34,932 bases of DNA from Pseudobutyrivibrio sp. (lineage in GTDB: Bacteria > Bacillota > Clostridia > Lachnospirales > Lachnospiraceae): the NCBI GenBank assembly GCA_024697025.1, contig JAILGH010000039.1:1-34932 (forward strand), in the 5' to 3' direction. Position numbers and translations under genes: made by a program. Below, piece by piece: positions 2,479 through 26,206 of this stretch; position 1 is the stretch's first letter, and every line of letters begins with the position of its first letter. The notes beneath the pieces were generated by a model. The model worked only from the letters and a program-made list of their open reading frames with translations, ran no database searches and was not told where the DNA came from.

Positions 2479-2563
2479 AGCTTGTTACGCTGACAATCCT
2501 AATAGTCTCTTCCACTGACTGATGTCAGTTTCCAGAGACATTAGAGATTGTCAACTACAAGCT
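2479..2563 (-). repeat. Structured intergenic element, copy A
   Basis: This imperfect palindrome of 85 nt ends in AGCTTGT / ACAAGCT. Inside, read on the minus strand, are TGACAATC / GATTGTCA, CTAAT / ATTAG, GTCTCT / AGAGAC and an apical ACTGAC-ATCA-GTCAGT hairpin. It lies 26 nt before the DUF1385 start, leaving room only for the ribosome binding site. Copies B to E show the same architecture with different stem sequences. Confidence 0.85.
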
Positions 2564-2573
2564 TCATTTCAAT

Positions 2574-2588
2574 GTCTGTTACGCTCTC
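2574..2588 (-). repeat. Remnant arm of the structured element
   Basis: These 15 bases (GTCTGTTACGCTCTC on the plus strand) match the left arm of copy E exactly but are not followed by the rest of the element. The remnant lies 10 nt beyond copy A, which suggests a decayed second copy. Confidence 0.5.
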
Positions 2589-2663
2589 TTTATCTCTTGG
2601 TTATTTGGTTTTCTTAAATAACTCAAATAATTCATATCCATGCACAGCATACACCGTTACACG

Positions 2664-2693
2664 GAAAAAGGGCTGAGACGAATCTCAACCCTT
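2664..2693 (-). terminator. Rho-independent terminator of rpmE
   Basis: On the minus strand GGGTTGAGA and TCTCAGCCC pair around a TTCG loop and are followed by five T. It begins about 20 nt past the rpmE stop codon. It separates rpmE from the DUF1385/prmC/prfA group, so either those genes have their own promoter or readthrough occurs. Confidence 0.88.
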
Positions 2694-2711
2694 AAAAGTC
2701 CATAAAACAAA

Positions 2712-2918
2712 CTACTTTGCGTCAATACCATACTTCTTATTGAACTTGTCAATACGTCCACGAGCCTGTGTAGCTTTCTGCTGGCCTGTGTAGAATGGAT
2801 GACACTTAGAACAAATTTCTACGTGGATGCTTTCCTTTGTAGAACCTGTTGTAAATGTGTTACCGCAGTTGCAAGTAACTGTAGCCTGATAATAATCTGG
2901 ATGGATACCCTGTCTCAT
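2712..2918 (-). CDS. rpmE: 50S ribosomal protein L31, zinc-binding (C+) type
   Basis: L31 bridges the two ribosomal subunits. The start is taken at the ATG at 2918 ([11 protein letters not shown], 68 residues) because GAGAGG lies 8 nt upstream. The alternative GTG at 2927 overlaps that binding site and would add three residues not typical of the family. Cysteines at positions 16, 18, 36 and 39 (CNC and CSKC) form the zinc site of the C+ form, which is usually exchanged for a zinc-free paralogue under zinc limitation. A strong terminator follows, and a structured leader lies upstream. Confidence 0.96.
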
Positions 2919-2993
2919 TGATTTCACCTCTCATTTAATAAATGTTTACAATTTCCAACTGTAAAAGAAGACAACTCAAACATATTGAATTGC

Positions 2994-3057
2994 CGGGGTA
3001 CGTGCCCTAAGACACGAATCATACTGTCTAAATGCGAGGTCCTCGCATTTCATCCCG
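2994..3057 (-). promoter_or_regulatory. Possible structured leader of rpmE
   Basis: This 64-nt stretch, 76 nt before the rpmE start, can fold on the minus strand with CGGG/CCCG at its ends. It encloses a 9-bp hairpin AAATGCGAG/CTCGCATTT (3030-3050) and a second stem AGACA/TGTCT (3010-3029). A further hairpin, TTTACAGTT/AAATTGTAAA with one G-T pair, lies nearer the gene. Autoregulatory L31 leaders are known in bacteria, but I cannot test for a match to one. The 353-nt gap from 2919 to 3271 contains this structure and copy B, with no gene that I can support. Confidence 0.35.
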
Positions 3058-3119
3058 ATTTAACAGCTCTATAACTATAACATGCCAAATACAAAATTGC
3101 AAGTAAAATAATTTATCCC

Positions 3120-3203
3120 GCAAGTTACGGATACAATCATAATAATTTCCTGGGTCACTAACACGTGACCTACGGAAACAATTATAGATTGTCTCCTACT
3201 TGC
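3120..3203 (-). repeat. Structured intergenic element, copy B
   Basis: This palindrome of 84 nt has terminal stems GCAAGT / ACTTGC. On the minus strand ACAATC pairs with GATTGT, TTTCC with GGAAA, and the apical GGTCAC-GTGTTA-GTGACC forms a hairpin. It lies in the gap between DUF4364 and rpmE, about 200 nt before the rpmE start, so it is the copy farthest from a start codon. Confidence 0.85.
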
Positions 3204-3271
3204 TCATAAGAATTTATTTAATTTCTTTAATACTTCAGTTTTCAAACTTGGCATAACATAATTAAATAGCG

Positions 3272-3787
3272 TTAGGACATCAGTATATCCATTAGCGCCA
3301 TGTACACATCATCGCCACGGACCTTCCAATTGTTACATAAGGTTTCCGCTTGCTGCTTGGTTGCAACGTGAAAGCTAACATCTAGCGCAGGAACATCGTC
3401 CTCCGTAATACGAAGCTGTACCACGTATCCGCCCCTGTCAGCCTTGAAGTAGGTAGCTCGGTATGAGTTTTCCTCCTTCATAGTAATTGAATTGGCCTTG
3501 AGGTACTTATTTATATCCTTGGAAAGAGGCTTGGTAATCTTTTCCTTGAAAAGCTCTAGTGTCTTCTTTCCTTCCTCTGTAATCGAATAAGTCGTGTTGT
3601 TGTGAGTTGTTGATGAAACAATCAGCCCCGCCTCTTCATCGTCGCTAATTGCCTGCTGGGCGGTAAAATAGTCCGTCAAATCTCCCTCTAGGAAAAAATC
3701 TGTAATCTGACTATTGCTAAGAGAAAATCCACTCCGCTGTAATAATTCTAGTATCGTAATCTTGTATATCAAATTAGGCTCTGCCAT
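3272..3787 (-). CDS. DUF4364 family protein (predicted winged-helix regulator)
   Basis: The 171-residue protein has the features of the clostridial DUF4364 family. Its N-terminal half (IYKITILELLQRSG through EEGKKTLELF) reads like a PadR-type winged helix, followed by an alpha/beta domain ending KVRGDDVYMALMDILMS. No ligand or DNA target is known to me. AAGGAAG precedes the ATG. It sits 43 nt downstream of the malic enzyme gene and may be co-transcribed with it. A transcription-factor role is inferred from the fold resemblance only. Confidence 0.8.
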   Translation of the reverse strand: MAEPNLIYKITILELLQRSGFSLSNSQITDFFLEGDLTDYFTAQQAISDDEEAGLIVSSTTHNNTTYSITEEGKKTLELFKEKITKPLSKDINKYLKANSITMKEENSYRATYFKADRGGYVVQLRITEDDVPALDVSFHVATKQQAETLCNNWKVRGDDVYMALMDILMS

Positions 3788-3830
3788 GGCTTTTCTTCCT
3801 TTCTCTCAACATAAAGATAATCAGATTAGA

Positions 3831-4982
3831 CTACCCCAATGCTTTGATTGCATTTGCAACAGCTACAGGCACCCTAGGATCAAAAGCTTCAGGCAAAATA
3901 AACTCATCGCAAAGCTGCTCCTCGGAAACGAGATTTGCAATTGTCTCTGCTGCTGCAAGCTTCATCTCTTCTGTGATAGCTGTGGCGCGGCACTCTAATG
4001 CGCCTCTGAAAATACCAGGGAAAGCAACTACGTTGTTTACCTGATTTGGGAAGTCGGAACGACCTGTACCCACTACTCTAGCACCAGCGGCCTTAGCCTC
4101 GTCTGGCATAATCTCTGGTGTTGGATTGGCCATTGCAAATAAAATTGAATCCTTGGCCATTGAAGCTACCATTTCTTTAGAAACAATGCCTGGCGCTGAA
4201 ACACCTACAAAAATATCTGCTCCAACTAATGCGTCTGCAAGAGTACCTGTCTTGTGAGAAAGATTAGTAACCTCTGTCATTTCCTTCTGCATCCAGTTGA
4301 GGTTTGGATAATCAGGACCAATGATACCCTCACGGTCACACATTGTAACATCCTTAAAACCATATCTAAGAAGAAGCTTAGTAATTGCAACACCAGCTGA
4401 ACCAGCACCGTTAACAACAACCTTACAGGCTTCCTTGTCCTTTCCAACAACCTTGAGACCATTGATAATACCTGCAAGTACAACGATGGCTGTACCATGC
4501 TGATCATCATGGAATACTGGTATGTCTAATTCTTTTTTAAGTCTTTCCTCGATTTCAAAACAGCGAGGTGCTGAAATATCCTCTAGATTGATTCCTCCAA
4601 AAGTAGGTGCAATAGCCTTAACTGCTGCAACTATTTCATCTGGATCCTGTGTATCTAAAACGATAGGGAATGCATTGACACCACCAAACTCTTTAAACAA
4701 TACACACTTGCCTTCCATAACTGGCATAGCTGCAAGTGGTCCTATGTTTCCAAGCCCAAGAACTGCCGACCCATCTGATACAACAGCCACTGTGTTGGCC
4801 TTTAAAGTGTAGTTGTAAGCCTGCTCACTGTCCTCTGCGATAACTCGACATGGAGCTGCAACACCTGGTGTGTAAGCTATAGATAAATCTTCTCGATTCT
4901 TAACTGGAGCCTTAGAAACGGTCTCAATTTTGCCGTTCCACTGCTTGTGTAAAAATATTGCGGTTTCGTCTACTGATGCCAT
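3831..4982 (-). CDS. Malic enzyme (oxaloacetate-decorboxylating malate dehydrogenase)
   Basis: The enzyme oxidatively decarboxylates malate to pyruvate and CO2 with NAD(P)+ in the cytosol. The 383-residue length fits the short bacterial class. It shows the catalytic tyrosine region SIAYTPGVAAPC, the lysine region TLKANTVAVVSDGSAVLG, the metal site motifs NLEDISAP and FHDDQHGTA, and a Rossmann loop VVNGAGSAGVA. Cofactor preference cannot be read reliably from sequence. GAAGGGAAG precedes the ATG. Together with DUF4364 it separates rho from rpmE, genes that are adjacent in many Clostridia. The name should read oxaloacetate-decarboxylating. Cofactor choice is the main uncertainty. Confidence 0.94.
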   Translation of the reverse strand: MASVDETAIFLHKQWNGKIETVSKAPVKNREDLSIAYTPGVAAPCRVIAEDSEQAYNYTLKANTVAVVSDGSAVLGLGNIGPLAAMPVMEGKCVLFKEFGGVNAFPIVLDTQDPDEIVAAVKAIAPTFGGINLEDISAPRCFEIEERLKKELDIPVFHDDQHGTAIVVLAGIINGLKVVGKDKEACKVVVNGAGSAGVAITKLLLRYGFKDVTMCDREGIIGPDYPNLNWMQKEMTEVTNLSHKTGTLADALVGADIFVGVSAPGIVSKEMVASMAKDSILFAMANPTPEIMPDEAKAAGARVVGTGRSDFPNQVNNVVAFPGIFRGALECRATAITEEMKLAAAETIANLVSEEQLCDEFILPEAFDPRVPVAVANAIKALG

Positions 4983-5043
4983 AATTTAACTTCCCTTCTA
5001 TGAATAATTAAAAATTTAAACTGTAGATAGTAACTATAAATAA

Positions 5044-6444
5044 TTAGATAACACGCTTTCTGATAATCATATCTATGTACTCATCATTATTTCTAGTATG
5101 AGCAAACATATTTAAGATAGTTTCAACAGCGTCCTCTCTGCGGGCACCATTGATAGCTTTTCTCATGATTTCCATTGCATCCAATTCTTTCTGTGAAAGA
5201 AGTAAATCCTCTCGACGTGTACCAGAACCAGTAATATCAATAGCTGGGAATATTCTCTTTTCTGAAAGCTTTCTATCAAGGATAAGTTCCATGTTACCTG
5301 TACCCTTGAATTCCTCGAATACTACGTCATCCATCTTTGAACCAGTCTCTACAAGGGCTGTTGCAAGAATTGTAAGGCTTCCGCCCTCTCTCATATTTCT
5401 TGCAGCACCAAAGAACTTCTTTGGCATGTGAAGAGCTGCTGGGTCAAGACCACCTGAAAGTGTACGACCTGATGGCTGAACTGTAAGGTTGTAAGCTCTT
5501 GCAAGTCTTGTGATAGAGTCAAGAAGGATCATAACATCCTGACCGTGCTCTACAAGTCTTTTTGCACGCTCGATAACCATTTCAGAAACACGCTTATGGT
5601 GCTCTGGACTCTCATCGAATGTAGAATAAATAACCTCAACATTCTTGCTGTTACGCATAGTGTCCTTCATGTCTGTAACTTCCTCAGGACGCTCGTCAAT
5701 AAGCAAGATGATAAGATGCATATCTGGATGTGAATAATTAACTGATGTGGCAACCTCTTTAAGAAGTGTTGTCTTACCAGCCTTAGGCTGAGAAACAATC
5801 ATACCACGCTGTCCCTTACCGATAGGGCTAACCAAGTCCACGATGCGCATTGCAACCGAACTGCGCTGACGCTCAAGGCGAATTCTCTCGTTAGGGAATA
5901 CTGGTGTAAGGTCTTCGAATGAAGGTCTCTTTGTAGCAGCCTCTGGAGAATAATTATTGATGCTGTCAATAATCATTAAAGCTGCGAACTTATCTGTAGG
6001 ATTGTTAAAGCGCTTCTTTCCTACAATAATATCTCCTGTTTTGAGATTGAACTTTTTAATCTGTGACTGTGACACGTAAACGTCATCTGTGCCTGGCATG
6101 TAATTATCACAGCGGATAAATCCAAATCCGTCTCCCATTACCTCAAGAATACCTCTTGCAGGAATAAGACCATCTGTTGGAATATCAGCTGGTATATCAG
6201 CCTTCTCAGTCTTGTCTTGGCCATCTGCTGGCTTTGATGCTCTGTAAATGTTCTTTGGCTTTTCTGCTCTCTCTGGCTCTGCAGCTGGTGCTTCTTTAGC
6301 TGCAGCCTTTGCATCGATTTCGTCCTGTGCAAGCATAGCCTCAACTAAGTCAGCTTTTTTCATTCCAGTAATACCTTTAATACCCCTGGCCTTTGCCAAG
6401 TCGCGTAAAACAGAAGCCGCTAAACTCTCATACTTTTCTCTCAT
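5044..6444 (-). CDS. rho: Transcription termination factor Rho
   Basis: Rho is a hexameric RNA-dependent ATPase that ends transcription of untranslated RNA. The 466-residue protein begins with a SAP-like Rho N-domain (1-45) and a charged Ala/Glu/Lys-rich linker (about 45-90). A cold-shock type RNA-binding domain carries GDGFGFIR (104-111). The ATPase core has Walker A QPKAGKTT (219-226), Walker [11 protein letters not shown] and the R-loop region [17 protein letters not shown] stands 6 nt before the ATG. No lesions were seen. It is followed by malic enzyme rather than directly by rpmE. Confidence 0.98.
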
Positions 6445-6569
6445 CTAAATCTCCTTAAAATATTAGTCTATAACGTGGAATTAAAAAGTCGAATCGACTA
6501 TTGAATTAAACTTTGATGATAAAAGCATTATATACTCAAAAGTCGTTTCTGTCCATCATTAAAATTTCT

Positions 6570-8507
6570 TTATGCAAGTCGATTTATTTTTTCGCCAAAA
6601 AATTCTTCCACTTGATTGATTGGTACAGGTGCTGCATAGTTAAATCCTTGAATATATTCAAAACCAAGTTTAATAGATAATTCTGCCTGAGGACTGTTCT
6701 CGACACCCTCCACCAAAACTACAAGACCATGGCTCTTAAATACATCAACCATATTTTGAATCAATTGTAACAAGATTGGGTCATCCATCGAGCGGTATAA
6801 CAAAGTCTTGTCAAACTTGATTGTTTTAAATGGTAGGCTAACGATCTTTTCAAGATTAGAATAGCCAGTACCAAAATCATCCAAATAAAAATGAACACCG
6901 GCGGCATTGAACTCTTCCATGTTGTGAGTGATTGCGTCGATTTCATCACTTGTCATAGTCTCTGTCATCTCAAGACGAATCTTGTTACAAGCCACACCGT
7001 TTTTCTTGATGATAGCAATAAGCTCGTCATGGAGACAGTAATCCATAAACTCAGATAGAGATACATTTACCGAAACCGCATCAAACACGTAGTAATCCTG
7101 TATCTCATAAATTTTTTTGCAAACCTTATTAAGAATAATCCTTGTGAGAGCATGTACACATCCTACCCTCTCAGCCAAAGGAATAAATATATCCGGTGAA
7201 ATAATTTGTCCATTTACATCAAGACGCATTAAGGCTTCAGCATTGTGATAGTTATTACGCTTTACGTCGTAGATTGGCTGCACATAAACTATCACTCTTG
7301 GGTCGTCCAAATCATCTTTGTTTCTAATATCAACAATAACCTTTTCTATTGTACGCTGTTCCATGCAAAGGCTGTAGTCAACCTTGGATGCCTCGTAATA
7401 ATTTGCCTTCTTTTTAGAAGCGCGCTGGAAAAGAAAATTCACAAAGGTATTTAAAGTAATCAAATCATCAAAGGCAAAATCTTCGTTCAAGACAATCATC
7501 TGATACTCTGGATTGTTGGAATACTCCCACTTTTCCATGGTCTTGTTTAGTTCCTTGCGAATAAACCCTATGGTCTCAGTGGTGGCAAGCTCGGAAGCAT
7601 TTTCAAATAATATCCCAAAAGCATAGTTGTTTATTTGATAAACGTAAGTGTTCTCGTTGTATCTTTCTAAAACACGAATCTCACCTGCAATCTTCTTTTT
7701 TACAATCTCCATAAGCTCCATGTTGTCAACCATCTCAAGGCGTGGAAATCGAAGATAGATTGTGGTAAAGCTCTTTTTCTTGAGAACTAAAGAAGTGTAA
7801 TGGGATTCAAATGCCAACTTGTTTTGACATCCAGTAACCTCATCAAAGCTAATGCTATGAAAAATTATGTAGCACAATATAAATGGTAGAACATAAGTTA
7901 CACTGAGAAAAACATAGCTTGGACGAAGAAGCTGGAAAACCAAAAGGGCTATCTCAAAAGGCATGAAAATGTAAAGGAATTTCACTAATACCTTTGGGAT
8001 ACCAGCACTATTTGCAATAACTGAGCAAACTATAAGTGCCATTATAGCTAAACCAAATACTATATTGATTCCAAAGAGACCTGTAAAATGATAAACTGAA
8101 CCCTTTAAATCGATATAACTTTCAGATAGAAATACGCTGCCTACTACTGTAAGGTAGCTGACACCAAACAACACCGACACTACATTTAAAGTATCTAAGT
8201 TCTCTCTCTGATTAAGGCTAAGTAAATGAATATAACAAAATAGCATCAAAAGAATTCCTAAGTAGGATAAGTAATAAATCAAAACACTCATCCTAAATAA
8301 GAATCCCTGAAAAGCAGTATTAAAATCTATAAGCCATATGCTGGCCAGATGAAAAATGATATTGACTATTGAAAGAATTTGCCCGTAGAAAACCACAGAA
8401 AGCACGGCAGTTCTCTTTGGTCGAGTAACCACCGTCAAATATAGCATTGCTATCGCGATTAGCAAGTCTATCCTTTCAGCCGCAACATTGAATCCATTAA
8501 TACTCAT
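6570..8507 (-). CDS. Seven-TM membrane protein with degenerate GGDEF and intact EAL domains (probable c-di-GMP phosphodiesterase)
   Basis: The 645-residue protein starts with about seven membrane segments (roughly 14-27, 35-60, 69-98, 107-128, 141-167, 173-196, 198-218). A GGDEF-like domain (about 220-385) retains DEVTG at its start but has NNYAF where GGDEF should be, so it should not make c-di-GMP. The EAL domain (about 400-640) keeps EAL at 424-426, the N of NVS (481), the ETE-type glutamates in LEMTET, DDFGTGYS (543-550), the K of IKFDK (565), VEGVE (599-603) and YIQGF. An active phosphodiesterase is therefore likely. It lies 22 nt after the pyrophosphatase gene. The N-terminal sensor input is unknown. 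Confidence 0.93.
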   Translation of the reverse strand: MSINGFNVAAERIDLLIAIAMLYLTVVTRPKRTAVLSVVFYGQILSIVNIIFHLASIWLIDFNTAFQGFLFRMSVLIYYLSYLGILLMLFCYIHLLSLNQRENLDTLNVVSVLFGVSYLTVVGSVFLSESYIDLKGSVYHFTGLFGINIVFGLAIMALIVCSVIANSAGIPKVLVKFLYIFMPFEIALLVFQLLRPSYVFLSVTYVLPFILCYIIFHSISFDEVTGCQNKLAFESHYTSLVLKKKSFTTIYLRFPRLEMVDNMELMEIVKKKIAGEIRVLERYNENTYVYQINNYAFGILFENASELATTETIGFIRKELNKTMEKWEYSNNPEYQMIVLNEDFAFDDLITLNTFVNFLFQRASKKKANYYEASKVDYSLCMEQRTIEKVIVDIRNKDDLDDPRVIVYVQPIYDVKRNNYHNAEALMRLDVNGQIISPDIFIPLAERVGCVHALTRIILNKVCKKIYEIQDYYVFDAVSVNVSLSEFMDYCLHDELIAIIKKNGVACNKIRLEMTETMTSDEIDAITHNMEEFNAAGVHFYLDDFGTGYSNLEKIVSLPFKTIKFDKTLLYRSMDDPILLQLIQNMVDVFKSHGLVVLVEGVENSPQAELSIKLGFEYIQGFNYAAPVPINQVEEFFGEKINRLA

Positions 8508-8529
8508 TATTTATTGCCCCACATCTTGC

Positions 8530-10173
8530 TTATTCCTGTAGAGACTCCATGATAGGCGGAATAAGCTGTTTCTTTCTAGAAACAACCCCATCCAAAATGT
8601 AGCTGTCTACAGCAACAGGCATTCTAAATGCATCGGCAATTATTTTGTCCGCCTCCCCGCCAACGAATAGAAGCTCTGTTGATTCATTGAGAATATCTGT
8701 GAGCATAACAAACACCGCATTTAAATCCGATGAGTTAAGCACAGTATTCATATAAATCTTTAAATCAGCCTTTATTGAATTAAGCTGCCCCTTAGATATA
8801 GAACTAACTTGGGCAACACCAAATTTAACATCCCCGCTTGCAAACACTTTATAATCCTGATGGAATATCTGATCTGCAGTGCGATCCTTGAAATCGCTAC
8901 CTGCCTCAAACATTGAAGTGGCAAGTTCCGTAACATCAACACCTGCAATTTCAGCCAACTCCTTAGCACGCTGCTCGTCAGTAGGAGTACATGTAGGTGA
9001 TCTAAACATAAGTGTATCAGAAAGAATAGCAGAACACAAAAGTCCAGCGATATGTTTTGGAATTTCTACTGCTCTTTCCTTGTACATCAAAGACACGATT
9101 GTTGCCGTTGAACCAAGTGGCTGGTTTCTAAAGTAAATTGGAGAAACTGTCTCCAAAGAGCCCAATCTATGGTGATCAATAATCTCTAAAACTTCAGCCT
9201 GCTCAATTCCATCAACAGCCTGTGACTTTTCGTTGTGGTCAACAAGAATCACCTTCTTCTTTTGCATGTTTAAAAGAAGACGTCTTGAAACCATACCAAC
9301 ATAATGTCTGTTTTCATCAAGAATTGGGAAATCTCGATGACGTACAGTCTTCATAATATCTCTAACATCATCTACATAATCATCTAGCTCGAAGCTTACT
9401 ATATCATCTCGCTTCATAAACTGTCTGATTGGCATAGACTGATGAATCAATCTTGCAACTGTAAATGTGTCATACTCTGTAGTGATAAGCACCACCTGGT
9501 GCTCTGTAGCAAGCTTCTCCACCTCTGGGTCAACTGTGCTAGCACCGCATACAATAAGACAACTACATCCAGCCTCGATGCATATAAGCTGTCTTGCTGT
9601 GATATTACCAACAATGACAAGGTCATCCCTGTTAATATCTTCCTTTAAATCCTCACGGTTGCTTGAAGCAATTACAACTGAACCATTTACAAAATATGCA
9701 TGTGGATTGCCGTATACAAGCTTGCCATTTAATGTGCTGATGATATTGCTGTACTGAGTACGAGCTCTTGAAAGGATGCTATTGTCGTAGATATCCATAT
9801 ATGAATATGCAATATCACCGTTTACAATAACGCCCTCTAGCTTGCCGGTCTTTCCAACAACTGGAAGGGTGACAACATCTCGATCAATCATCAATTCCCA
9901 TGCTTTTTTAAGTGAAATATGACCGTCAACGCCCTCTAAGCGTCTGTATTCAATATCCATCAACTGCGCTCCAACGTCTTCAATAGTCTCTGGCTCTGGA
10001 ACGTTGAATCGCTCTAAAACATAACGGGTCTCTGAATTCAAAGGCCCCGCCTTCTTTGCTATATATGTTTCTTCCTCTGCTAAAGCATTCTTTAAGTAAG
10101 CGTAGCCTATAGCCGCGCAAATACTATCTGTATCAGGGTTCTTGTGTCCGATAACATAAATCGAATTAGACAT
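8530..10173 (-). CDS. ppaC: Manganese-dependent inorganic pyrophosphatase with CBS and DRTGG domains
   Basis: This family II pyrophosphatase splits PPi to phosphate. The 547-residue length is well above the 310 of the simple form because two CBS motifs (about 75-125 and 250-305) and a DRTGG-type domain (about 130-245) are inserted into the DHH core. Metal-binding signatures are GHKNPDTDS (9-17), VDHNE and IIDHHRLG (331-338), and the DHHA2 domain carries SRKKQ near the C-terminus. In known CBS-PPases, adenine nucleotides bind the CBS pair and tune activity; that is family knowledge, not seen here. The start follows GGAGGG. Neighbours are the coiled-coil protein upstream and the EAL protein downstream. 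Confidence 0.95.
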   Translation of the reverse strand: MSNSIYVIGHKNPDTDSICAAIGYAYLKNALAEEETYIAKKAGPLNSETRYVLERFNVPEPETIEDVGAQLMDIEYRRLEGVDGHISLKKAWELMIDRDVVTLPVVGKTGKLEGVIVNGDIAYSYMDIYDNSILSRARTQYSNIISTLNGKLVYGNPHAYFVNGSVVIASSNREDLKEDINRDDLVIVGNITARQLICIEAGCSCLIVCGASTVDPEVEKLATEHQVVLITTEYDTFTVARLIHQSMPIRQFMKRDDIVSFELDDYVDDVRDIMKTVRHRDFPILDENRHYVGMVSRRLLLNMQKKKVILVDHNEKSQAVDGIEQAEVLEIIDHHRLGSLETVSPIYFRNQPLGSTATIVSLMYKERAVEIPKHIAGLLCSAILSDTLMFRSPTCTPTDEQRAKELAEIAGVDVTELATSMFEAGSDFKDRTADQIFHQDYKVFASGDVKFGVAQVSSISKGQLNSIKADLKIYMNTVLNSSDLNAVFVMLTDILNESTELLFVGGEADKIIADAFRMPVAVDSYILDGVVSRKKQLIPPIMESLQE

Positions 10174-10213
10174 AATCCCTCCGTTTTCTATACTCTCTTA
10201 AAACTATTAACTG

Positions 10214-14740: not shown

Positions 14741-14767
14741 TTATAATCCTCTAAAGTAATTTAGTCC

Positions 14768-14854
14768 GCTGGTTACACTCTCAAGCCTGAGATATTATCT
14801 CCGGTGACTACAAATGTCACCTTCGATAACACTCAGAGCTTGATAGCTACCAGC
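14768..14854 (-). repeat. Structured intergenic element, copy C
   Basis: This palindrome of 87 nt has terminal stems GCTGGT / ACCAGC. On the minus strand TCAAGC pairs with GCTTGA, CTGAG with CTCAG, TTATC with GATAA, and GGTGAC with GTCACC at the apex. It sits between the M16 peptidase and era, 27 nt before the era start. The rest of the 14741-14986 gap is AT-rich and holds the 17-base repeat at 14938. Confidence 0.87.
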
Positions 14855-14937
14855 TCACCTAACTTTTTTATTACTCTTTTCTACTAACTTGTTATCAAAA
14901 TATTTTTCTCATATTCAATCTCATAACAATTCTTACA

Positions 14938-17899: not shown

Positions 17900-17926
17900 T
17901 ACATTTCCGTCCTATAAATAATATTT

Positions 17927-18847: not shown

Positions 18848-18900
18848 ATCGTCCTCCCGCTCTTTATAATCCGTTTAATTATAGCATAACAGACATTAAA

Positions 18901-18994
18901 AAACACCTAGTTACGCTAACAAGCCTAAGCATACCACGGAGCACTAACACGTGCACCTTAGGTACGCTAAGAGCTTGATAGCTACTAGGTGTTT
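18901..18994 (-). repeat. Structured intergenic element, copy D (may also act as terminator)
   Basis: The terminal stem is the longest of the family: AAACACCTAGT / ACTAGGTGTTT. Internally, on the minus strand, CAAGC pairs with GCTTG, AGCGTACC with GGTATGCT (one G-T), and GCAC-GTGTTA-GTGC forms the apex. On the minus strand the hairpin is followed by a run of six T, so this copy could end transcription after DUF1015 and lies 53 nt before the mscS-type gene. Confidence 0.87.
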
Positions 18995-19012
18995 AATAAA
19001 TCTTTTATGTTA

Positions 19013-20248
19013 TTAAATACGGTGTATAAATAATCCACTTCTGAGCTTTGGCTCAAACCATGTAGACTTTGGAGGCATAAGTAAGCCTGCGTCTGCCACG
19101 GCAAAAAGCTCATCTATGCTTGTAGGGTACATTGCAAATGCAACCTTGCAATCACTGTTGCAGCGACGCTCCAACTCCTCGAGGCCACGAATACCACCGA
19201 CAAAATCTATTCTAGAATCTGTCTTTGGATCTGCGATACCAAGAAGTGGCTCTAAAACCAAATTCTGAAGCAAGGAAACATCAAGTCCCTCAACTGGGTC
19301 ATCTGACTTGAGCTCTGGCTTAACCTGATAGAGATACCATGTGCCCTCAAGATACATTGACCACTGGCCCTTTTCCTTTGGACGAATTGGAGAATCAGAA
19401 GTCTCAACTATTGTTGCAACATTCTCCAGCTCCTCAAGCAACTCCTCTGGAGCGTGACCATTTAAATCCTTTACAACACGGTTGTAATCATAAATCTTAA
19501 GCTCCTCGTCTGGGAATAAAACCGAAAGGAAGAAGTTGAAATCCTCCTTGCCAGTGTATCCTGGATTTTCCTCGCGACGCTTGAAGCCCACCTTTACTGC
19601 ACTTGCAGCACGATGGTGACCATCTGCAATATAGATAGAATCCATCTCTGCAAAAGTAGAACTAATGAGAGCACTAGCCATCATATCCTGAATTATCCAG
19701 CAACGATGTCTGATGCCATCCTCAGCTGTAAAATCATACATTGGCTTGCGACTCTTAGCCTTGGCAACCACGCCAGAAATATGTGTGTTTGCTCTGTATG
19801 CTAAGAAAATTGGGCCAGTCTGAGCACTGCAGGTGTCAACGTGTCTGATTCTATCCTGCTCCTTGTCAGCTCTGGTATTTTCATGCTTTTTGATGACACC
19901 TGAAGCGTAATCATCGATTGAAGCACAAGCCACAATTCCTGTTTGAGTACGGCCATCCATAGTAAGCTCATACACATAATAGCAAGGCTTCTCATCCTGG
20001 ATGAATCTGCCCTCAGCAATCCATGAATCTAAAATCTCAGAAGCCTTTGCATAAACCTTGTCAGAATACATGTCTACATCTGGCTCAAAAGCGGTCTCAG
20101 GTCTATCTATTGCAAGAAAAGACTTTGGCTGCTCCTTAACCTTGGCATAGGCCTCCTGTCTGTTGTATACATCATAAGGAAGGGCTGCGATAACCGCAGC
20201 CTCTTCTTTTGTTGGTCGTATTGCTTTAAAAGGTAATACTTTAGCCAT
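19013..20248 (-). CDS. DUF1015 family protein linked to serine biosynthesis
   Basis: The biochemical role of this 411-residue protein is not established to my knowledge. Family hallmarks are FKAIRPTKE...ALPYDVYN at the start (8-29), KKHENTRADKEQDRIRH (120-136) and the ADGHHRAASA block (208-217). It forms an overlapping TAATG with serA, which itself overlaps serC in the same way, so three proteins are made from one transcript. No phosphoserine phosphatase gene is in the block. The DGHHR motif recalls the phosphate-handling motif of ParB/sulfiredoxin-fold proteins such as the serine kinase SerK, which makes a role with phosphoserine conceivable; that is inference. GGGTGG within the serA end serves as ribosome binding site. 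Confidence 0.9.
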   Translation of the reverse strand: MAKVLPFKAIRPTKEEAAVIAALPYDVYNRQEAYAKVKEQPKSFLAIDRPETAFEPDVDMYSDKVYAKASEILDSWIAEGRFIQDEKPCYYVYELTMDGRTQTGIVACASIDDYASGVIKKHENTRADKEQDRIRHVDTCSAQTGPIFLAYRANTHISGVVAKAKSRKPMYDFTAEDGIRHRCWIIQDMMASALISSTFAEMDSIYIADGHHRAASAVKVGFKRREENPGYTGKEDFNFFLSVLFPDEELKIYDYNRVVKDLNGHAPEELLEELENVATIVETSDSPIRPKEKGQWSMYLEGTWYLYQVKPELKSDDPVEGLDVSLLQNLVLEPLLGIADPKTDSRIDFVGGIRGLEELERRCNSDCKVAFAMYPTSIDELFAVADAGLLMPPKSTWFEPKLRSGLFIHRI

Positions 20249-21411
20249 TATTTTACCACCCTAACTTTTATAACTCCGTCAACCTTTGAAATCTCCTCAA
20301 TAACACTCTCAGAAGCTTTGTTAGCAAGATCAAGAAGAGTATAAGCATAATCTCCACGGCTCTTGTTAGTCATATCTTCTACGTTGATGTTAGCATTACC
20401 AAGAATTGTAGTGAATGATGCGATAAGACCAGCCTTATTCTTGTGAAGAATGGCTACACGAGCCTCTGTCTGGCAAACGCCCATATCACAATCTGGATAA
20501 TTTACTGAATGGCAAATATTACCATTTTCCATGTAATCCATTACTTCCTTAACAGCCATAACTGCACAGTTATCCTCAGCCTCCTCTGTAGAAGCACCAA
20601 GGTGTGGTGTACAGATAACACCTGGCTTGCCAGCTGTAGTAGGATTTGCAAAGTCAGTTACATAGTGACGAACCTTGCCTGCCTCGATAGCATCAACAAC
20701 AGCCTGCTCATCTACAAGAAGGTCACGAGCGAAGTTAAGGATTACAACACCCTTCTTCATCATCTGAACAGCTTCCTTGCTGATTAAGCCCTTTGTTGCA
20801 TCAAGAAGAGGAACGTGAACTGTAATGAAATCACACTCTCTGAAAATATCTTCGATATTAGTTACATGCTTTACGTTGCGAGATAAGTTCCAAGCAGCAT
20901 TTACTGAGATGTATGGATCGTAACCAAGTACTTCCATACCAAGGTGTGTTGCATCGTTAGCAACCTTTACACCGATAGCACCAAGTCCGATAACACCAAG
21001 CTTCTTGCCAGCAATTTCTGTACCAGCAAATGCCTTCTTAGCCTTTTCTGCTGTCTTACCGATGTTCTCGTCTTCTTTATTTTCAAGAACCCAGTCGATA
21101 CCGCCAACGATATCACGAGATGCAAGGAGCATACCTGCAAATACAAGTTCCTTAACACCGTTTGCATTAGCACCTGGTGTATTGAATACTACGATACCTG
21201 CCTCTGCACACTTATCAAGTGGAATATTGTTAACGCCGGCACCTGCACGAGCAACGCACTTTAAGTTGTCGCCAAGCTCAAGATCGTGCATAGCAGCTGA
21301 ACGAACTAAAGCTGCGTCTGCCTCGCCGATTGTCTCAACCTTTTTATAGTCTGTAGAGAAGTTTACAAGACCTTTATCTGAAATTGGATTTAAGCAATTA
21401 TAAGTAAACAT
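20248..21411 (-). CDS. serA: D-3-phosphoglycerate dehydrogenase with ACT domain
   Basis: The enzyme catalyses the first step of serine synthesis, oxidising 3-phosphoglycerate with NAD+. The 387-residue protein has substrate and nucleotide domains with the Rossmann loop GLGAIG (142-147), the catalytic-region arginine in NFARD (229) and histidine in TPHLGAST (270). A C-terminal ACT domain (about 318-387) usually senses serine. The start overlaps the serC stop (TAATG), with GAGGAGG just before it inside serC. DUF1015 overlaps the other end. Feedback control through the ACT domain is family knowledge. Confidence 0.96.
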   Translation of the reverse strand: MFTYNCLNPISDKGLVNFSTDYKKVETIGEADAALVRSAAMHDLELGDNLKCVARAGAGVNNIPLDKCAEAGIVVFNTPGANANGVKELVFAGMLLASRDIVGGIDWVLENKEDENIGKTAEKAKKAFAGTEIAGKKLGVIGLGAIGVKVANDATHLGMEVLGYDPYISVNAAWNLSRNVKHVTNIEDIFRECDFITVHVPLLDATKGLISKEAVQMMKKGVVILNFARDLLVDEQAVVDAIEAGKVRHYVTDFANPTTAGKPGVICTPHLGASTEEAEDNCAVMAVKEVMDYMENGNICHSVNYPDCDMGVCQTEARVAILHKNKAGLIASFTTILGNANINVEDMTNKSRGDYAYTLLDLANKASESVIEEISKVDGVIKVRVVK

Positions 21412-22493
21412 TATGCATTCTCCTCCTCAAACTTCTTCATGAACTCAACTAACTTCTCAACACCTTCGATTGGCATAGCGTTATAGATAGAAGCACGCAT
21501 ACCACCAACTGTTCTGTGACCCTTAAGGTTAACAAAACCAGCTGCAGTAGCTTCCTTTACGAACTTAGCATCAAGCTCTTCGTTACCTGTAACAAATGGT
21601 ACATTCATAAGTGAACGGTCTTCTTTTCTAACTGTACCCTTGAAAAGCTTTGAAGAATCAAGATAATCATATAAAATCTTAGCCTTCTTCTCATTGAGGT
21701 CCTTCATAGCCTCAAGACCACCGTTCTTAAGGAGCCACTTGAATACCTTGCCACAGATGTAGATTGTGTAGCATGGAGGTGTGTTGTAAAGACTGTCATT
21801 GTCTGCCTGAGTCTTGTACTTAAGCATTGTAGGAGTTCCCTCGAGAACATCATCTCTGATAAGGTCCTCACGGATAATTACGATAACCATACCTGCTGGT
21901 CCAACGTTCTTCTGAACACCGCCATAGATTACAGCATACTTGCTTACATCAACTGGCTCTGAAAGGAAGCATGAGCTAACGTCTGCTACCAGATCCTTGC
22001 CCTTTGTGTTTGGAAGTGTCTTGAACTTTGTACCGTAAATTGTGTTGTTCTCACAGATATATACATAATCCATATCATCAGTGATAGGTAAATCTGAGCA
22101 ATCTGGAATGTATGAGAATGTCTCATCTGCTGAAGAAGCAAGCTCTACAGCCTCACCATACATCTTTGCTTCCTGGAATGCCTTCTTTGCCCACTGACCA
22201 GTAACAATGTAACCAGCCTTCTTATTCTTCATAAGGTTCATTGGAATTGCTGCAAACTGCTGGCTTGCTCCACCCTGAAGGAAAAGAACCTTGTAGTTAT
22301 CAGGAATATTCATAAGCTTTCTGATGTCTGCCTCTGCGTCCTTGATGATTTCATCAAAAACCTTTGAACGGTGGCTCATCTCCATAACTGACATGCCAGA
22401 GCCCTTGTAATCAAGCATCTCATCTGCTGCTTCCTTAAGAACCTCCTCTGGTAATACTGCTGGTCCTGCACTAAAATTGTAAACTCTACTCAT
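21411..22493 (-). CDS. serC: Phosphoserine aminotransferase
   Basis: This PLP enzyme converts 3-phosphohydroxypyruvate and glutamate to phosphoserine. The 360-residue protein begins RVYNFSAGPAVLPEEVL, the family signature, and has the PLP lysine in GGVQKNVGPAG (K195). Conserved QGGASQQF (73-80) and the C-terminal GHRTVGGMRASIYN are present. AAAGGAG precedes the ATG. It follows ilvB by about 40 nt and leads the tightly overlapped serC-serA-DUF1015 set. Confidence 0.97.
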   Translation of the reverse strand: MSRVYNFSAGPAVLPEEVLKEAADEMLDYKGSGMSVMEMSHRSKVFDEIIKDAEADIRKLMNIPDNYKVLFLQGGASQQFAAIPMNLMKNKKAGYIVTGQWAKKAFQEAKMYGEAVELASSADETFSYIPDCSDLPITDDMDYVYICENNTIYGTKFKTLPNTKGKDLVADVSSCFLSEPVDVSKYAVIYGGVQKNVGPAGMVIVIIREDLIRDDVLEGTPTMLKYKTQADNDSLYNTPPCYTIYICGKVFKWLLKNGGLEAMKDLNEKKAKILYDYLDSSKLFKGTVRKEDRSLMNVPFVTGNEELDAKFVKEATAAGFVNLKGHRTVGGMRASIYNAMPIEGVEKLVEFMKKFEEENA

Positions 22494-22533
22494 TACTCTT
22501 AATCTCCTTTTTAAGCTACATGTAATCTAGGAA

Positions 22534-24204
22534 TTAATCTTCCACGAAAAACTCATTAATAGGTGCTCCTGGTGCTACCATTGGCCATACCTTGTCATCA
22601 CTACCTATGATACAGTCAATAAGCACAGGCTTCTCGGATCGAAGTGCCTCCGATAACACTTTGGCAAACTCCTCTTTGGTTGTTACTCTGTAGCCTGTAA
22701 CACCCATTGCCTCAGCCAACTTGACAAAGTCTACTCCATCGTCAAGTACAGTTGCGGAATAGCGCTTCTCGTAAAATAATGTCTGCCACTGTCTAACCAT
22801 TCCGAGCACGTGGTTGTTAATAACTATTTCAATGATTGGCAATTTCTCGCGGCTTGCGGTTGCCAACTCATTCATGTTCATTCTAAAGCAGCCATCACCT
22901 GCAAAGTTGATAACTGTCTTGTCTGGATTACCTGTCTTGGCACCGATTGCTGCTCCAAGACCGTATCCCATTGTTCCAAGACCGCCTGAAGTAAGTAACT
23001 GATGAGGCTTCTTGTACTTGTAGAACTGAGCAGCCCACATCTGATGCTGTCCTACCTCAGTAGTGATAATTGCATCACCCTTAGTCTGACGGTATGTCTC
23101 CTGAACGATATACTGTCCAGAAAGACCATTCTCAGGAACCTTAAGTGGGTTGGCATTAGAAATCTCCAAAACATGCTCCAACCATGAAGCGTGCTCCTTT
23201 TGCTCTAACATCTTGTTGATTCTAGAAAGGATTTCCTTGACGTCTCCAATAATTGCATGGTCAGTCATGATATTTTTGTTAATCTCAGCTGGGTCTACAT
23301 CAAACTGAAGAACCTTTGCCTTGCTAGCAAACTTAGCTGGATTACCAAGAACTCTATCAGAAAATCTTGTTCCCACTGCAATAAGCAAATCACACTCAGA
23401 AACTGCCAAGTTGGATGCCTTGGTACCATGCATACCAAGCATTCCGATATATTTGTCATCCTTGCCGCTGTATGCGCCCTTGCCCATGAGAGTATCACAA
23501 ACAGGTGCATCTACAAGGTCTACAAACTTCTTAAGCTCTTTGGATGCCCCAGAAAGAACTGCACCACCACCTACAAAAATCACTGGCTTCTTAGCTTTAT
23601 CGATGAGCTTGATTGCCTTTTTAATTCCGTCCTCAGTAATGTCCTTTTTAACTCTACCTGTTGGAATTGGCTTGATTGGCATGTACTCATACTTATTGTT
23701 AGGTGCTGTAACATCCTTTGGCACATCGATAAGTACTGGGCCTGGTCTGCCTGTCTGAGCAATCATAAAGGCACGACGGATTGTATCAGCCAAATCCTTG
23801 ATATCCTTTACGATGAAATTGTGCTTTGTGATAGGCATTGTGATACCAGTGATATCAATCTCCTGGAAAGAATCCTTACCTAAAAGAGGAACTGTTACAT
23901 TACATGTAATTGCAATCATTGGAACTGAATCCATATGTGCTGTTGCAATACCTGTCACAAGATTAGTTGCACCAGGGCCCGATGTGGCAAAACATACGCC
24001 CACCTTGCCAGTTGATCTTGCATAACCATCCGCAGCGTGGCTTGCGCCCTGCTCATGGCTAGTAAGAACATGGTGAATCTCATCCTTGTGCTTGTAAAGT
24101 TCGTCGTAAAGATTGAGGATGGCACCGCCTGGATAACCAAACACTGTGTCAACGCCTTGCTCTTTCAAGCACTCAATAATAATCTCTGAACCGCTTAATA
24201 ACAT
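22534..24204 (-). CDS. ilvB: Acetolactate synthase large (catalytic) subunit
   Basis: The ThDP enzyme condenses two pyruvates to acetolactate, or pyruvate with 2-oxobutyrate, at the entry to valine, leucine and isoleucine synthesis. The 556-residue protein carries the catalytic glutamate in SHEQGASH (E51), a central FAD-type domain and the ThDP motif GDGCFRMN...NN. No gene for the small regulatory subunit (IlvN) lies next to it. The ribosome binding site is weak (AAAGGC), and a compact hairpin ends 24 nt before the start. ilvD is upstream and serC downstream. Confidence 0.95.
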   Translation of the reverse strand: MLLSGSEIIIECLKEQGVDTVFGYPGGAILNLYDELYKHKDEIHHVLTSHEQGASHAADGYARSTGKVGVCFATSGPGATNLVTGIATAHMDSVPMIAITCNVTVPLLGKDSFQEIDITGITMPITKHNFIVKDIKDLADTIRRAFMIAQTGRPGPVLIDVPKDVTAPNNKYEYMPIKPIPTGRVKKDITEDGIKKAIKLIDKAKKPVIFVGGGAVLSGASKELKKFVDLVDAPVCDTLMGKGAYSGKDDKYIGMLGMHGTKASNLAVSECDLLIAVGTRFSDRVLGNPAKFASKAKVLQFDVDPAEINKNIMTDHAIIGDVKEILSRINKMLEQKEHASWLEHVLEISNANPLKVPENGLSGQYIVQETYRQTKGDAIITTEVGQHQMWAAQFYKYKKPHQLLTSGGLGTMGYGLGAAIGAKTGNPDKTVINFAGDGCFRMNMNELATASREKLPIIEIVINNHVLGMVRQWQTLFYEKRYSATVLDDGVDFVKLAEAMGVTGYRVTTKEEFAKVLSEALRSEKPVLIDCIIGSDDKVWPMVAPGAPINEFFVED

Positions 24205-24228
24205 AAACTCTTTGCCTTTCTATTTTTT

Positions 24229-24274
24229 CCGCCCGTTACGTTCTCATCTATGAGCTTGTAGCCGTAACCAGCGG
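24229..24274 (-). repeat. Compact hairpin before ilvB, possible short relative (copy H) of the structured element
   Basis: On the minus strand CCGC/GCGG, GTTACG/CGTAAC and CTCAT/ATGAG stack into a 46-nt hairpin with the internal segment GCTACAAGCTC. It shares GTTACG and GAGCTTG-TAGC with the larger copies, but the middle is missing. It ends 24 nt before ilvB and begins 2 nt after the ilvD stop codon. Confidence 0.6.
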
Positions 24275-24275
24275 A

Positions 24276-25946
24276 TTAAAGTTCTGGAGTGCGTAAAATC
24301 GCACCACGGTTACCAGATGTAACCTGGGCTGCATATCTGCGAAGGTAACCTGTTGTAACCTTTGGCTCACGTGGCTGCCATTTAGCCTTACGAGCTGCAA
24401 GCTCCTCATCAGATACCTTTAAAGTCATTGTATAGTTTGGAATATCAATTGCGATAATGTCGCCTTCTTCAACAAGAGCAATTGGACCGCCTACTGCTGC
24501 CTCTGGAGAAACATGTCCTATTGAAGCGCCACGGCTTGCTCCTGAGAAACGACCATCTGTAATAAGTGCAACTGACGAACCAAGTCCCATACCAGCAATT
24601 GCTGATGTAGGATTGAGCATCTCTCTCATACCTGGACCACCCTTAGGGCCTTCATAGCGAATGACAACAACATCGCCTGGAACAATCTTGCCGCCCTTGA
24701 TAGCTGCAATAGCATCCTCTTCGCTATCAAATACTCTTGCTGGACCTTCGTGAACAAGCATCTCTGGAACAACAGCACTTCTCTTAACAACAGAGCCGTC
24801 TGGTGCAAGGTTTCCCTTAAGGACTGCAAGTCCACCTGTCTTTGTATATGGATTATCCACTGGTCTGATAACCTCTGGATTTCTGTTAACTGCATTTGCA
24901 ATATTCTCACCAACAGTCTTGCCTGTAACTGTCATGCAATCTGTGTTGAGAAGTCCGATGTCTGCAAGTTCTTTCATAACTGCCCAAACACCGCCAGCCT
25001 CGTTAAGGTCTTCCATGTACGTAGGACCTGCTGGAGCAAGGTGACAAAGATTTGGAGTCTTTTCAGAAATAGGATTTGCAAACTCGATATCAAAATCAAA
25101 GCCAATCTCGTGGGCAATAGCTGGTAGATGAAGCATTGAGTTAGTTGAACAGCCAAGCGCCATATCAACTGTAAGAGCATTTAAAACAGCCTCTTTTGTC
25201 ATAATCTGACGAGCTGTGATGCCCTTGTTATACATATCCATAACAGCCATACCAGCATGCTTTGCAAGACGAATACGCTCTGAGTATACAGCTGGGATTG
25301 TACCGTTGCCTCTAAGTCCCATACCAAGTGCCTCTGTAAGACAGTTCATGGAATTGGCTGTGTACATACCTGAACAGCTACCGCACGTAGGGCAAACATT
25401 TTCAACAAAGTTCTCTACCTCATCCTCTGTCATGTTGCCTGCTGCGTGAGCACCAACTGCCTCAAACATAGATGAAAGTGAACGCTTCTGACCGCCAACG
25501 TGACCTGCAAGCATAGGACCGCCTGATACAAATACTGTAGGTAAATCAAGGCGAGCTGCTGCCATCAAAAGACCTGGTACATTCTTATCACAGTTTGGCA
25601 CCATAACAAGAGCATCAAACTGATGTGCAAGTGCCATACACTCTGTAGAATCAGCAATCAAATCTCTTGTGACAAGAGAATATTTCATACCAATATGTCC
25701 CATTGCAATACCGTCACAAACAGCAATTGCTGGGAACACTACTGGAACACCGCCTGCCTCGGCAACTCCAAGCTTAACCGCATCAACAATCTTGTCGATA
25801 TTCATATGACCTGGCACGATTTCGTTGTACGAAGATACGATGCCGACCATTGGCTTTTTCATTTCCTCAGGAGTGAATCCCAAGGCATTAAACAAAGAAC
25901 GTGCTGGGGCTTGCTGCATACCAGCTCTTGCATTATCACTTCTCAT
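24276..25946 (-). CDS. ilvD: Dihydroxy-acid dehydratase
   Basis: This iron-sulfur enzyme dehydrates dihydroxyisovalerate and dihydroxymethylvalerate in branched-chain amino acid synthesis. The 556-residue length is normal. Cysteines expected to hold the cluster are seen in NCDKNVPG (C119) and CPTCGSCSG (185-193), and the conserved DGRFSGAS and GHVSPEA motifs lie near the C-terminus. AAGGAG precedes the ATG, and copy E of the structured element ends 27 nt before the start. leuB is upstream across a 394-nt gap and ilvB downstream. Confidence 0.97.
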
Positions 25947-25973
25947 TTCCTTACTCCTTTTTAAATATAGTCC

Positions 25974-26059
25974 GTCTGTTACGCTCTCAAGCCTAAGATA
26001 TTGTTCCGCTCGACTAACACGTCTCGCTTCACAACACTTAGAGCTTGATAGCTACAGAC
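25974..26059 (-). repeat. Structured intergenic element, copy E
   Basis: Terminal stems are GTCTGT / ACAGAC. On the minus strand TCAAGC pairs with GCTTGA, CTAAG with CTTAG, TGTTGT with ACAATA, and GAC-GTGTTA-GTC forms the apex. It ends 27 nt before ilvD. It is the first of three successive copies or part-copies in the ilvD-leuB gap. Confidence 0.87.
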
Positions 26060-26148
26060 TCATCAAAATTAATAAAATTCAATATAAATCTGCCAATTAA
26101 CAACTCTAACCCTTATAGCTGGTTATGCGGCCAGCCTGGGGTGGTGGC
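26054..26148. repeat. 95-nt direct repeat, copy 1
   Basis: This stretch matches 26230-26324 at about 90 percent, with two compensating single-base indels. It begins inside the right arm of copy E and ends in the left arm of copy F. The repeat period is 176 nt. Confidence 0.85.
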
Positions 26149-26206
26149 GCTACAGAAACTAACACGTCTACTTAGACAACACATAGAGATTGTCATGCTA
26201 CTGGCT
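26117..26206 (-). repeat. Structured intergenic element, divergent copy F
   Basis: Its right half (ACTAACACGT through TAGAGATTGTC and GCTAC) matches copies A and B. Its left half, GCTGGTTATGCGGCCAGCC with a GGGGTGGTGG stretch, matches only copy G. The ends AGCTGGT and ACTGGCT pair with two G-T pairs, but the inner stems do not match. It looks like a chimera of two elements. Confidence 0.6.

What the first reader, a model, noticed from the sequence alone, without database searches (positions are those of the whole stretch)
2479..26206. Family of covarying palindromic intergenic elements
Five full copies (2479-2563, 3120-3203, 14768-14854, 18901-18994, 25974-26059) share one architecture. Seen directly: terminal stems AGCTTGT/ACAAGCT, GCAAGT/ACTTGC, GCTGGT/ACCAGC, AAACACCTAGT/ACTAGGTGTTT and GTCTGT/ACAGAC differ in sequence but always pair. 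The inner stem switches between CAAGC/GCTTG (three copies) and ACAATC/GATTGT (two copies), again keeping pairing. The apical stem also varies around a loop GTGTTA in three copies. Unpaired parts are conserved: GTAGCTA on one side, AGCGTAAC on the other, TGA before and GGA(C/T)TA after the hairpin. Changes that keep pairing imply selection on structure. I know of no named family that fits; this may be a new structured RNA or REP/MITE-like element.
Basis: partly seen in the sequence, partly recalled or inferred. Interest (0 to 1): 0.85.

Follow-up and report, generated by a model that had tools for sequence, protein, structure and literature searches.

The report
Mobile hairpin repeats with swapped stems
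Rumen bacteria of the genus Pseudobutyrivibrio carry many copies of a roughly 100-letter hairpin, mostly just in front of genes, which comes and goes between species and whose inner part is found nearly unchanged inside quite different, yet almost always perfectly matching, stems.

Summary
The five copies fold strongly and belong to a family found only in Pseudobutyrivibrio: 42 copies in this genome, matches in 28 of 29 genus genomes, two weak matches among 382 other genomes sampled, none in Rfam. It does not behave like a conserved regulatory leader: orthologous sites are filled in some species and empty in others, copies nest, and remnants occur. Copies lie sense to transcription (43 of 48 in co-directional gaps), usually before a Shine-Dalgarno, or as T-tailed terminators. 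The surprise: the ~76-nt module GTAG...GTAAC is shared without its stem. In 34 non-orthologous pairs with modules at most 8% different, the next stem bases are as unlike as between unrelated copies (same 4-mer in 2 of 34; close orthologues 5 of 7), yet the stems pair, with almost no G-U. An unrelated GC-rich module sits between the same ends twice. Best reading: a REP/MITE-like modular mobile hairpin whose mobiliser is unknown; Y1 transposases are missing from 19 and reverse transcriptases from 14 of 29 genomes.

The parts
2471..2567 (-). full copy 1 (terminal stem AGCTTGT/ACAAGCT), just upstream of the ORF 1523-2452
   Evidence: 75.6 bits
3111..3207 (-). full copy 2 (GCAAGT/ACTTGC), downstream of ORF 3272-3787 and about 190 nt upstream of rpmE (gene name recognised from the sequence, no database call)
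   Evidence: 99.8 bits
14759..14858 (-). full copy 3 (GCTGGT/ACCAGC, ends TGAG..CGGACTA), between an M16C peptidase gene and an era-type GTPase gene, shortly before its start
   Evidence: 93.8 bits; Pfam names GTPase and KH domains, the name era is recalled
18897..18993 (-). full copy 4, terminator form (AAACACCTAGT/ACTAGGTGTTT followed by T), after the DUF1015 gene and before an MscS-type channel gene
   Evidence: 90.0 bits; 4 of the 12 rows listed for this gap carry this form (own, L078, L088, L097), others have unrelated terminators or repeats
25965..26063 (-). full copy 5 (GTCTGT/ACAGAC, ends TGAG..CGGACTA), shortly before the ilvD-type dehydratase gene
   Evidence: 95.9 bits
26109..26209 (-). 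degenerate copy between the leuB-type gene and the ilvD-type gene
   Evidence: (17.2 bits, E 0.012)
24205..24275 (.). remnants of two head-to-head copies, both internally deleted, between the ilvD-type gene and the TPP enzyme gene; L069 holds both in full at the same site

Best explanation
A modular, non-autonomous, REP/MITE-like hairpin element of Pseudobutyrivibrio. It has three layers: short outer ends (type A TTAR-RTGA...GGAYTA, type B (A/G)TA...GAGA, type C TAA...GTAG), a stem P1 of largely free sequence but nearly always perfect pairing, and a ~76-nt module GTAG...(C/T)GTAAC that folds into the inner hairpin. Shown: copies differ in presence between species, nest and shrink; what is shared almost unchanged between unrelated sites is the module, with a sharp boundary directly outside its first GT and its last AC. 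Inferred: modules are copied into sites and P1 is made or rewritten there, most simply because the replicating strand folds back at the foot of the hairpin and copies one arm from the other (template switching), which gives perfect stems without G-U steps. Once in place the element is carried by the transcript in sense, as a stable leader hairpin before the Shine-Dalgarno or, where P1 is long and followed by T, as an intrinsic terminator; selection keeps the sense-strand fold of the inner stems. The enzyme that moves it is unknown.
For: Range: 42 copies in G000 at E<=1e-4, 28 of 29 genus genomes, and in the order 10 genus genomes plus 2 weak others of 392. Presence/absence: gap before the era-type gene short, filled, shrunken or differently filled among 23 named loci; leuB-ilvD gap empty in L078, L081, L088 and filled in L097, L082, L086; 104 of 137 copies had syntenic flanks in G012, many of those shown lacking the element there (output partly cut, state judged by length). 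Nesting: L057 and L028, G012:1667260, L075:4590, L356 and L364. Module without stem: (per-site difference at -1/+1 0.71/0.74, background 0.66/0.67; module ends 0.00-0.18); all four inner P1 pairs Watson-Crick in 185 of 192 parsed copies, mean 14.2 when right arms are shuffled. Placement: 43 sense to 5 antisense (p 1e-8); SD plus start within 60 nt in 77 of 92 type A copies (permissive pattern, no control); 20 of 35 long-P1 copies T-rich at the stem end, 1 of 92 type A. Same ends around another module: G012 156401 (type A) and 629701 (type B). Template switching as a maker of perfect stems: PMC8794818 (abstract and discussion read).
Against: No de novo insertion was seen, and no target duplication could be fixed: TAG, TA and a TTATAGA-like repeat each fit some sites only. 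A pattern search for copies with a gene inside found none in 2.4 Mb of G012 or the other loci held. Y1 and RT genes do not track the element. P1 is not random: G was not seen at arm position -2 in 192 copies. Among 108 ortholog-like pairs whose modules differ by more than 8%, only 15 share the P1 4-mer, so P1 is not simply a lasting property of the site. Two of seven close orthologue pairs also differ in P1. Outer end types are not wholly independent of the module: in close pairs positions -6, +5 and +10 differ less than in unrelated pairs (0.35, 0.18, 0.35 against 0.60, 0.41, 0.55). The 34 pairs share copies; 17 disjoint pairs give 2 with the same P1. Gene conversion between resident copies would give much of the same pattern.
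Confidence: 0.66

Rival explanations
1. Concerted evolution: the elements mostly sit still, and homologous recombination (gene conversion, or DNA from relatives) homogenises the similar modules while the unlike stems are left out. Partly compatible with the best explanation.
For: The boundary lies where similarity between copies ends. G003:L303 before ilvD has the left arm of L086 and the right arm of L082 around an almost identical module, i.e. it looks recombinant, with a broken P1.
Against: Does not explain empty orthologous sites, nested complete copies or placement. The module is only ~76 nt, short for efficient recombination (recalled). Mosaic modules were not looked for.
Confidence: 0.25
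2. Modules jump into the loops of hairpins that were already there (terminators, older copies), so P1 is simply the host hairpin. A special case of the best explanation.
For: Terminator forms look like ordinary A-stem-stem-T terminators split by the module; modules sit at the tip of another copy's inner stem (G012:1667260, L075:4590).
Against: No loop bases are left between stem and module in the copies read. At the one terminator site compared, no species had the same stem without the module. No class of hairpins with a GTAAC loop in G012. Orthologous sites with diverged modules rarely keep P1 (15 of 108); I lowered this one from 0.25 to 0.2 for that.
Confidence: 0.2
3. REP element proper: mobilised by a TnpA(REP)/RAYT Y1 transposase that recognises GTAG plus the palindrome.
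For: The module begins with GTAG (GTAA in some) before an imperfect palindrome, as described for REPs (PMC8266576, passages read). Close inverted pairs occur: 12 of 12 inverted pairs within 150 nt are head to head.
Against: PF01797 is found in 10 of 29 genus genomes, and not in G000, G012 or G013, which have 42, 70 and 100 copies. No element lies in the 28 fetched loci around Y1 or RT genes. GTAG lies partly inside an outer stem here.
Confidence: 0.12
4. A regulatory RNA class (riboswitch-like or protein-bound leader) under selection, whose stems evolve by ordinary compensatory change.
For: Position before the Shine-Dalgarno and sense orientation; conserved unpaired bases; G-U over A-C 35:4 in inner stems.
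Against: Unrelated neighbours in the window; presence/absence at orthologous sites; nested and deleted copies; terminator forms; 5 G-U to 730 Watson-Crick cells in P1.
Confidence: 0.1

Closest known systems
REP / BIME / REPIN with TnpA(REP) (RAYT)
   Same: High-copy intergenic palindromes, GTAG before an imperfect palindrome (PMC8266576, passages read), inverted pairs.
   Different: A ~76-nt module within an outer variable stem; no Y1 gene found in 19 of 29 genomes; sense-orientated placement; close inverted pairs only head to head.
Pneumococcal BOX, RUP and SPRITE
   Same: Small repeats nearly confined to one group, predicted to fold in transcripts; BOX is built of modules with an inner boxB that can be missing or repeated; SPRITE resembles terminators; judged likely parasitic (PMC3049150, abstract and sections 5 and 6 read).
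   Different: Sequence relation not tested. Here the stem itself is largely free in sequence and differs between near-identical modules, and the same ends hold an unrelated module.
MITEs in general
   Same: Short, non-autonomous, filled/empty sites, nested insertions (definition recalled and from PMC3049150).
   Different: No terminal inverted repeat of fixed sequence, no established target duplication, no partner transposase found.

Membership tests
REP / TnpA(REP) | Palindrome preceded by GTAG | tested here: met
   Module starts GTAG, GTAA in a minority; feature from PMC8266576
REP / TnpA(REP) | Cognate Y1 transposase in the genome or beside the repeats | tested here: not met
   PF01797 in 10 of 29 genus genomes, none in G000 or G012; no element in the loci around the Y1 genes
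MITE | Presence/absence at orthologous sites | tested here: met
MITE | Conserved terminal inverted repeats | tested here: not met
   P1 arms are inverted repeats but differ from copy to copy (49 left 4-mers); the short outer ends are not inverted repeats of each other
MITE | Target-site duplication | tested here: inconclusive
   TAG or TA at several sites, TTATAGA-like repeat at the ilvD gap
Known Rfam family | Covariance-model match at the gathering score | tested here: not met
   0 matches in the window and in five loci with elements; at relaxed E in seven loci only two hits, neither on an element
Intrinsic terminator (long-P1 copies) | Stable stem followed by T-tract | tested here: met
   20 of 35 long-P1 copies have at least 6 T in 13 nt at the stem end, against 1 of 92 type A copies; 15 of 35 do not; termination itself not tested
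Integron attC site | Conserved R boxes and an integron integrase | not tested
   Considered from memory only because both are structured elements with variable stems

The most novel reading that the evidence does not exclude
A two-part mobile system: short outer ends plus a stem that is rewritten as a perfect inverted copy at every new site, able to house unrelated structured modules (the ~76-nt module, a GC-rich one, perhaps a third). The unit of inheritance is then a fold and two end motifs rather than a sequence, and its mobiliser would be a new kind of hairpin-reading or replication-coupled mechanism.
Probability: 0.3. Interest if true: 0.85.

Novelty: new variant of a known kind. Interest (0 to 1): 0.62.

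Why it matters
Compensatory change is the usual proof of a functional RNA stem. Here is a large natural family, at least 30 copies in 25 of 29 genus genomes, in which a stem keeps perfect pairing while its sequence differs wholesale between copies with nearly identical interiors, apparently without single compensatory steps. It makes the template-switch explanation of perfect stems testable, warns against reading covariation in dispersed repeats as function, and points to an unknown way of moving hairpins in these bacteria that places them at translation starts and transcript ends.

Tried and rejected
Riboswitch or regulon: unrelated genes, sites not conserved. RAYT/IS200 mobilisation. Reverse-transcriptase mobilisation: PF00078 in 15 of 29 genomes, not in G012. 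Autonomous copy with a gene inside: none by pattern search in the sequence held (its hits are neighbouring, nested or unrelated pairs). Insertion into GTAAC-loop hairpins: no such class in G012. Hits outside the genus (L067, L068; 28.1 and 24.7 bits) look by eye like chance matches without the motif; a badly framed and then a too loose end search, no use made of them except that first showed the GC-rich repeat. The first tRNA control was misaligned (80 of 294 cells neither paired nor G-U nor A-C) and was replaced by the one, which picks the best offset per tRNA. The '10 of 10' and '5/7 against 0/14' tests used hand counts; the proper counts are 12 of 12 (two of the six genomes have no close pair) and 5/7 against 2/34. 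In one search type A ends with a stem of 6 or more occur 40 times against 14 expected by shuffling, 19 of them known copies; types B and C are at expectation (96 against 94, 79 against 71), so only type A carries weight. A third module (G012 about 1382010, 8-bp stem, TTAAGTGA..GGATTA) rests on one case. Papers: searches returned none; 32, 55, 56, 70, 71, 91, 92 were seen as listings, three papers opened.

Rows dropped: 63 of 71 matches used (4 repeats of a locus, 4 weak), 27 of 28, 60 of 62 (2 under 30 bits). P1 could be parsed by rule in 136 of these 150 and 56 of 60 further ones, 192 in all, 186 distinct. The unparsed include broken stems such as G003:L303, so the pairing count is biased upwards.
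Full report
What the window holds. The window is one contig of a Pseudobutyrivibrio genome (inferred: 22 of the 23 nearest named records bear that genus, the other is Butyrivibrio fibrisolvens 16/4; the genome has 2.71 Mb in 110 contigs). The five copies are at 2471-2567, 3111-3207, 14759-14858, 18897-18993 and 25965-26063, all on the - strand, in the direction of the genes around them. Each folds into one long imperfect hairpin, z -5.58 to -8.43 against 200 dinucleotide shuffles. Copies 1, 3 and 5 lie shortly before an ORF, an era-type gene and an ilvD-type gene; copy 4 is a terminator form after a DUF1015 gene and before an MscS-type gene; copy 2 lies between an ORF and rpmE (gene names beyond the Pfam/NCBIfam domains are recalled).

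Family and range. A covariance model of the five finds 42 copies at E<=1e-4 in the genome and matches in 28 of 29 genomes of the genus: none in G036, 1 in G007, 7 in G004, 19 in G018, 30 to 140 in the other 25 (G003 gives 143 when searched alone; counts are limited by the number of candidates scored). In a sample of 392 genomes of the order, searched with stricter filters and ten candidates scored each, 12 match: ten of this genus and two others with 24.7 and 28.1 bits that by eye do not show the motif. Rfam has no match. Full-text searches for Pseudobutyrivibrio with intergenic and palindromic, and with interspersed repeat, returned no paper; the library holds open-licence papers only.

Anatomy. 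From 186 distinct copies: outer ends of type A (92 copies, TTAR-RTGA ... GGAYTA), type B (20, (A/G)TA ... GAGA), type C (7, TAA ... GTAG), 35 with a longer paired stem, 32 others. Inside follows P1, mostly G-C-Y-N, then GT and AC, and the module GTAG ... (C/T)GTAAC with its own stems and an apical stem that often holds tandem G.A mismatches. P1 has 49 different left 4-mers; all four pairs are Watson-Crick in 185 of 192 parsed copies (6 of them repeats of a locus), against 14.2 on average, 27 at most, when right arms are shuffled.

Covariation. On 67 distinct rows 24 of 28 pairs change on both sides, 93.4% of cells pair, and the score is 0.524 against 0.154 for shuffles and at most 0.075 for slid partners; G012 alone gives 0.557. 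In stems P2-P4 G-U outnumbers A-C 35 to 4, so the fold of the sense strand seems to be under selection there. In P1 there are 5 G-U to 730 Watson-Crick cells, against 27 to 266 in tRNA acceptor stems of G012 (Fisher 4e-11; P2-P4 with 35 to 1603 is also lower, 5e-8).

Placement. In 2.4 Mb of G012, 60 copies were placed against a simple ORF map: 43 sense and 5 antisense in co-directional gaps, 9 between convergent genes, 1 between divergent genes, 2 inside called ORFs; random intergenic places give 1851 sense to 1812 antisense. SD plus start codon within 60 nt follows 77 of 92 type A, 14 of 20 type B, 2 of 7 type C, 16 of 35 long-P1 and 21 of 32 other copies (permissive pattern, no control); 20 of 35 long-P1 copies are T-rich at the stem end against 1 of 92 type A copies. 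Inverted neighbours within 150 nt are head to head in 12 of 12 cases in six genomes, p 5e-4.

Mobility. Between the M16C peptidase gene and the era-type gene, among 23 named loci, the gap is short in some (for instance L070, L080, L081, L088, L097), filled in others (L069, L071, L078, L079, L082, L086, L087), shrunken (L072, and a remnant in L086), carries another interior (L077) or a different repeat (L075, L076, L089). Between the leuB- and ilvD-type genes L078, L081 and L088 are empty and L097, L082 and L086 filled. The nearest pair, G012 and L070 at 93.7% identity, differ by a filled era-type gap. Complete copies lie inside others (L057, L028, L356, L364) and modules at the tip of other modules (G012:1667260, L075:4590). 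The window's own ilvD-TPP gap holds two internally deleted copies that are complete in L069. Target duplications could not be settled.

The module leaves its stem behind. For 34 pairs of non-orthologous copies whose modules differ by at most 8%, the P1 4-mer is the same in 2, and the per-site difference of the arm is 0.48 against 0.064 in the module; of 7 orthologous pairs, 5 share it (Fisher 5e-4; pairs share members, and 17 disjoint pairs give 2). The difference profile jumps from 0.00 at the module's outermost bases to 0.71 and 0.74 at the neighbouring bases, the level of unrelated copies (0.66, 0.67). The outer end motifs follow the module to some degree (positions -6, +5, +10 differ less in close pairs). 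Examples within one genome: G003 L294, L314, L297 (1 to 3 differences in 75, stems GTCA, GTTG, GCTG). Before ilvD, L082 and L086 have modules one base apart and different stems, and G003:L303 joins the left arm of the one with the right arm of the other. Against a stem that simply stays with the site: of 108 ortholog-like pairs with modules more than 8% different, 15 share the 4-mer. A GC-rich module of another sequence was found four times in G012, once between type A and once between type B ends with perfect stems of 9 and 10 pairs, and twice in other stems with some G-U.

Mechanism. Shown: presence/absence, nesting, module and stem decoupled, sense placement. Inferred: copies are carried by mRNA as leader hairpins or terminators, and P1 is made or remade at the site, by fold-back copying (template switching, as proposed for RNA genes in PMC8794818), by insertion into an existing hairpin, or only apparently so because modules are exchanged by recombination. 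Neither PF01797 (10 of 29 genomes) nor PF00078 (15 of 29) looks like the general mobiliser, and no element lies in the 28 fetched loci around such genes; other transposase families were not searched.

Comparison. It works like REP, BOX or SPRITE repeats: small, structured, dispersed, probably parasitic and in places useful. It is not filed as a REP, because no Y1 transposase is found in most genomes that carry it, nor as a classical MITE, because there is no fixed terminal inverted repeat. It is a new family and, through the free but perfect stem and the exchangeable module, a new variant of this kind.

Noticed in passing
L074, L075, L079, L086 (gaps around leuB, ilvD and TPP enzyme genes and DUF1015-mscS); G012 about 155433, 156401, 629701, 1612065: A second dispersed structured repeat, GC-rich (GCGCGAGCA(A/G)G ... 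TGCGGGAGC(A/T)T), also held in stems that differ from copy to copy and twice between the same outer ends as the first family; no Rfam match.
   Followed up: partly
G012 about 1382010 (- strand): A possible third module between type A ends (TTAAGTGA, 8-bp stem, GGATTA), seen once.
   Followed up: no
L075, L076, L089 (era-type gap) and L075, L076, L077, L089, L090 (leuB-ilvD gap): Another palindromic repeat (CCCTCATC.. with GC-rich arms) occupies the same gaps in some species.
   Followed up: no
L156 (G010), L157 (G002), L161 (G037): RAYT-like Y1 proteins (those of L156 and L157 start MARKKREWYPGA; L161 judged by score and length only) without any of these elements within the fetched stretch.
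   Followed up: partly
window 26045-26340: The leuB-ilvD gap holds a repeated block (CCACCACCCCAG..CTGG..GCATAACCAGCTATAAGG) around the degenerate copy, as if the region had been duplicated (read by eye).
   Followed up: no
L044 2773-2917: Sub-threshold match to the Clostridiales-1 RNA family (30.1 bits, gathering 48).
   Followed up: no
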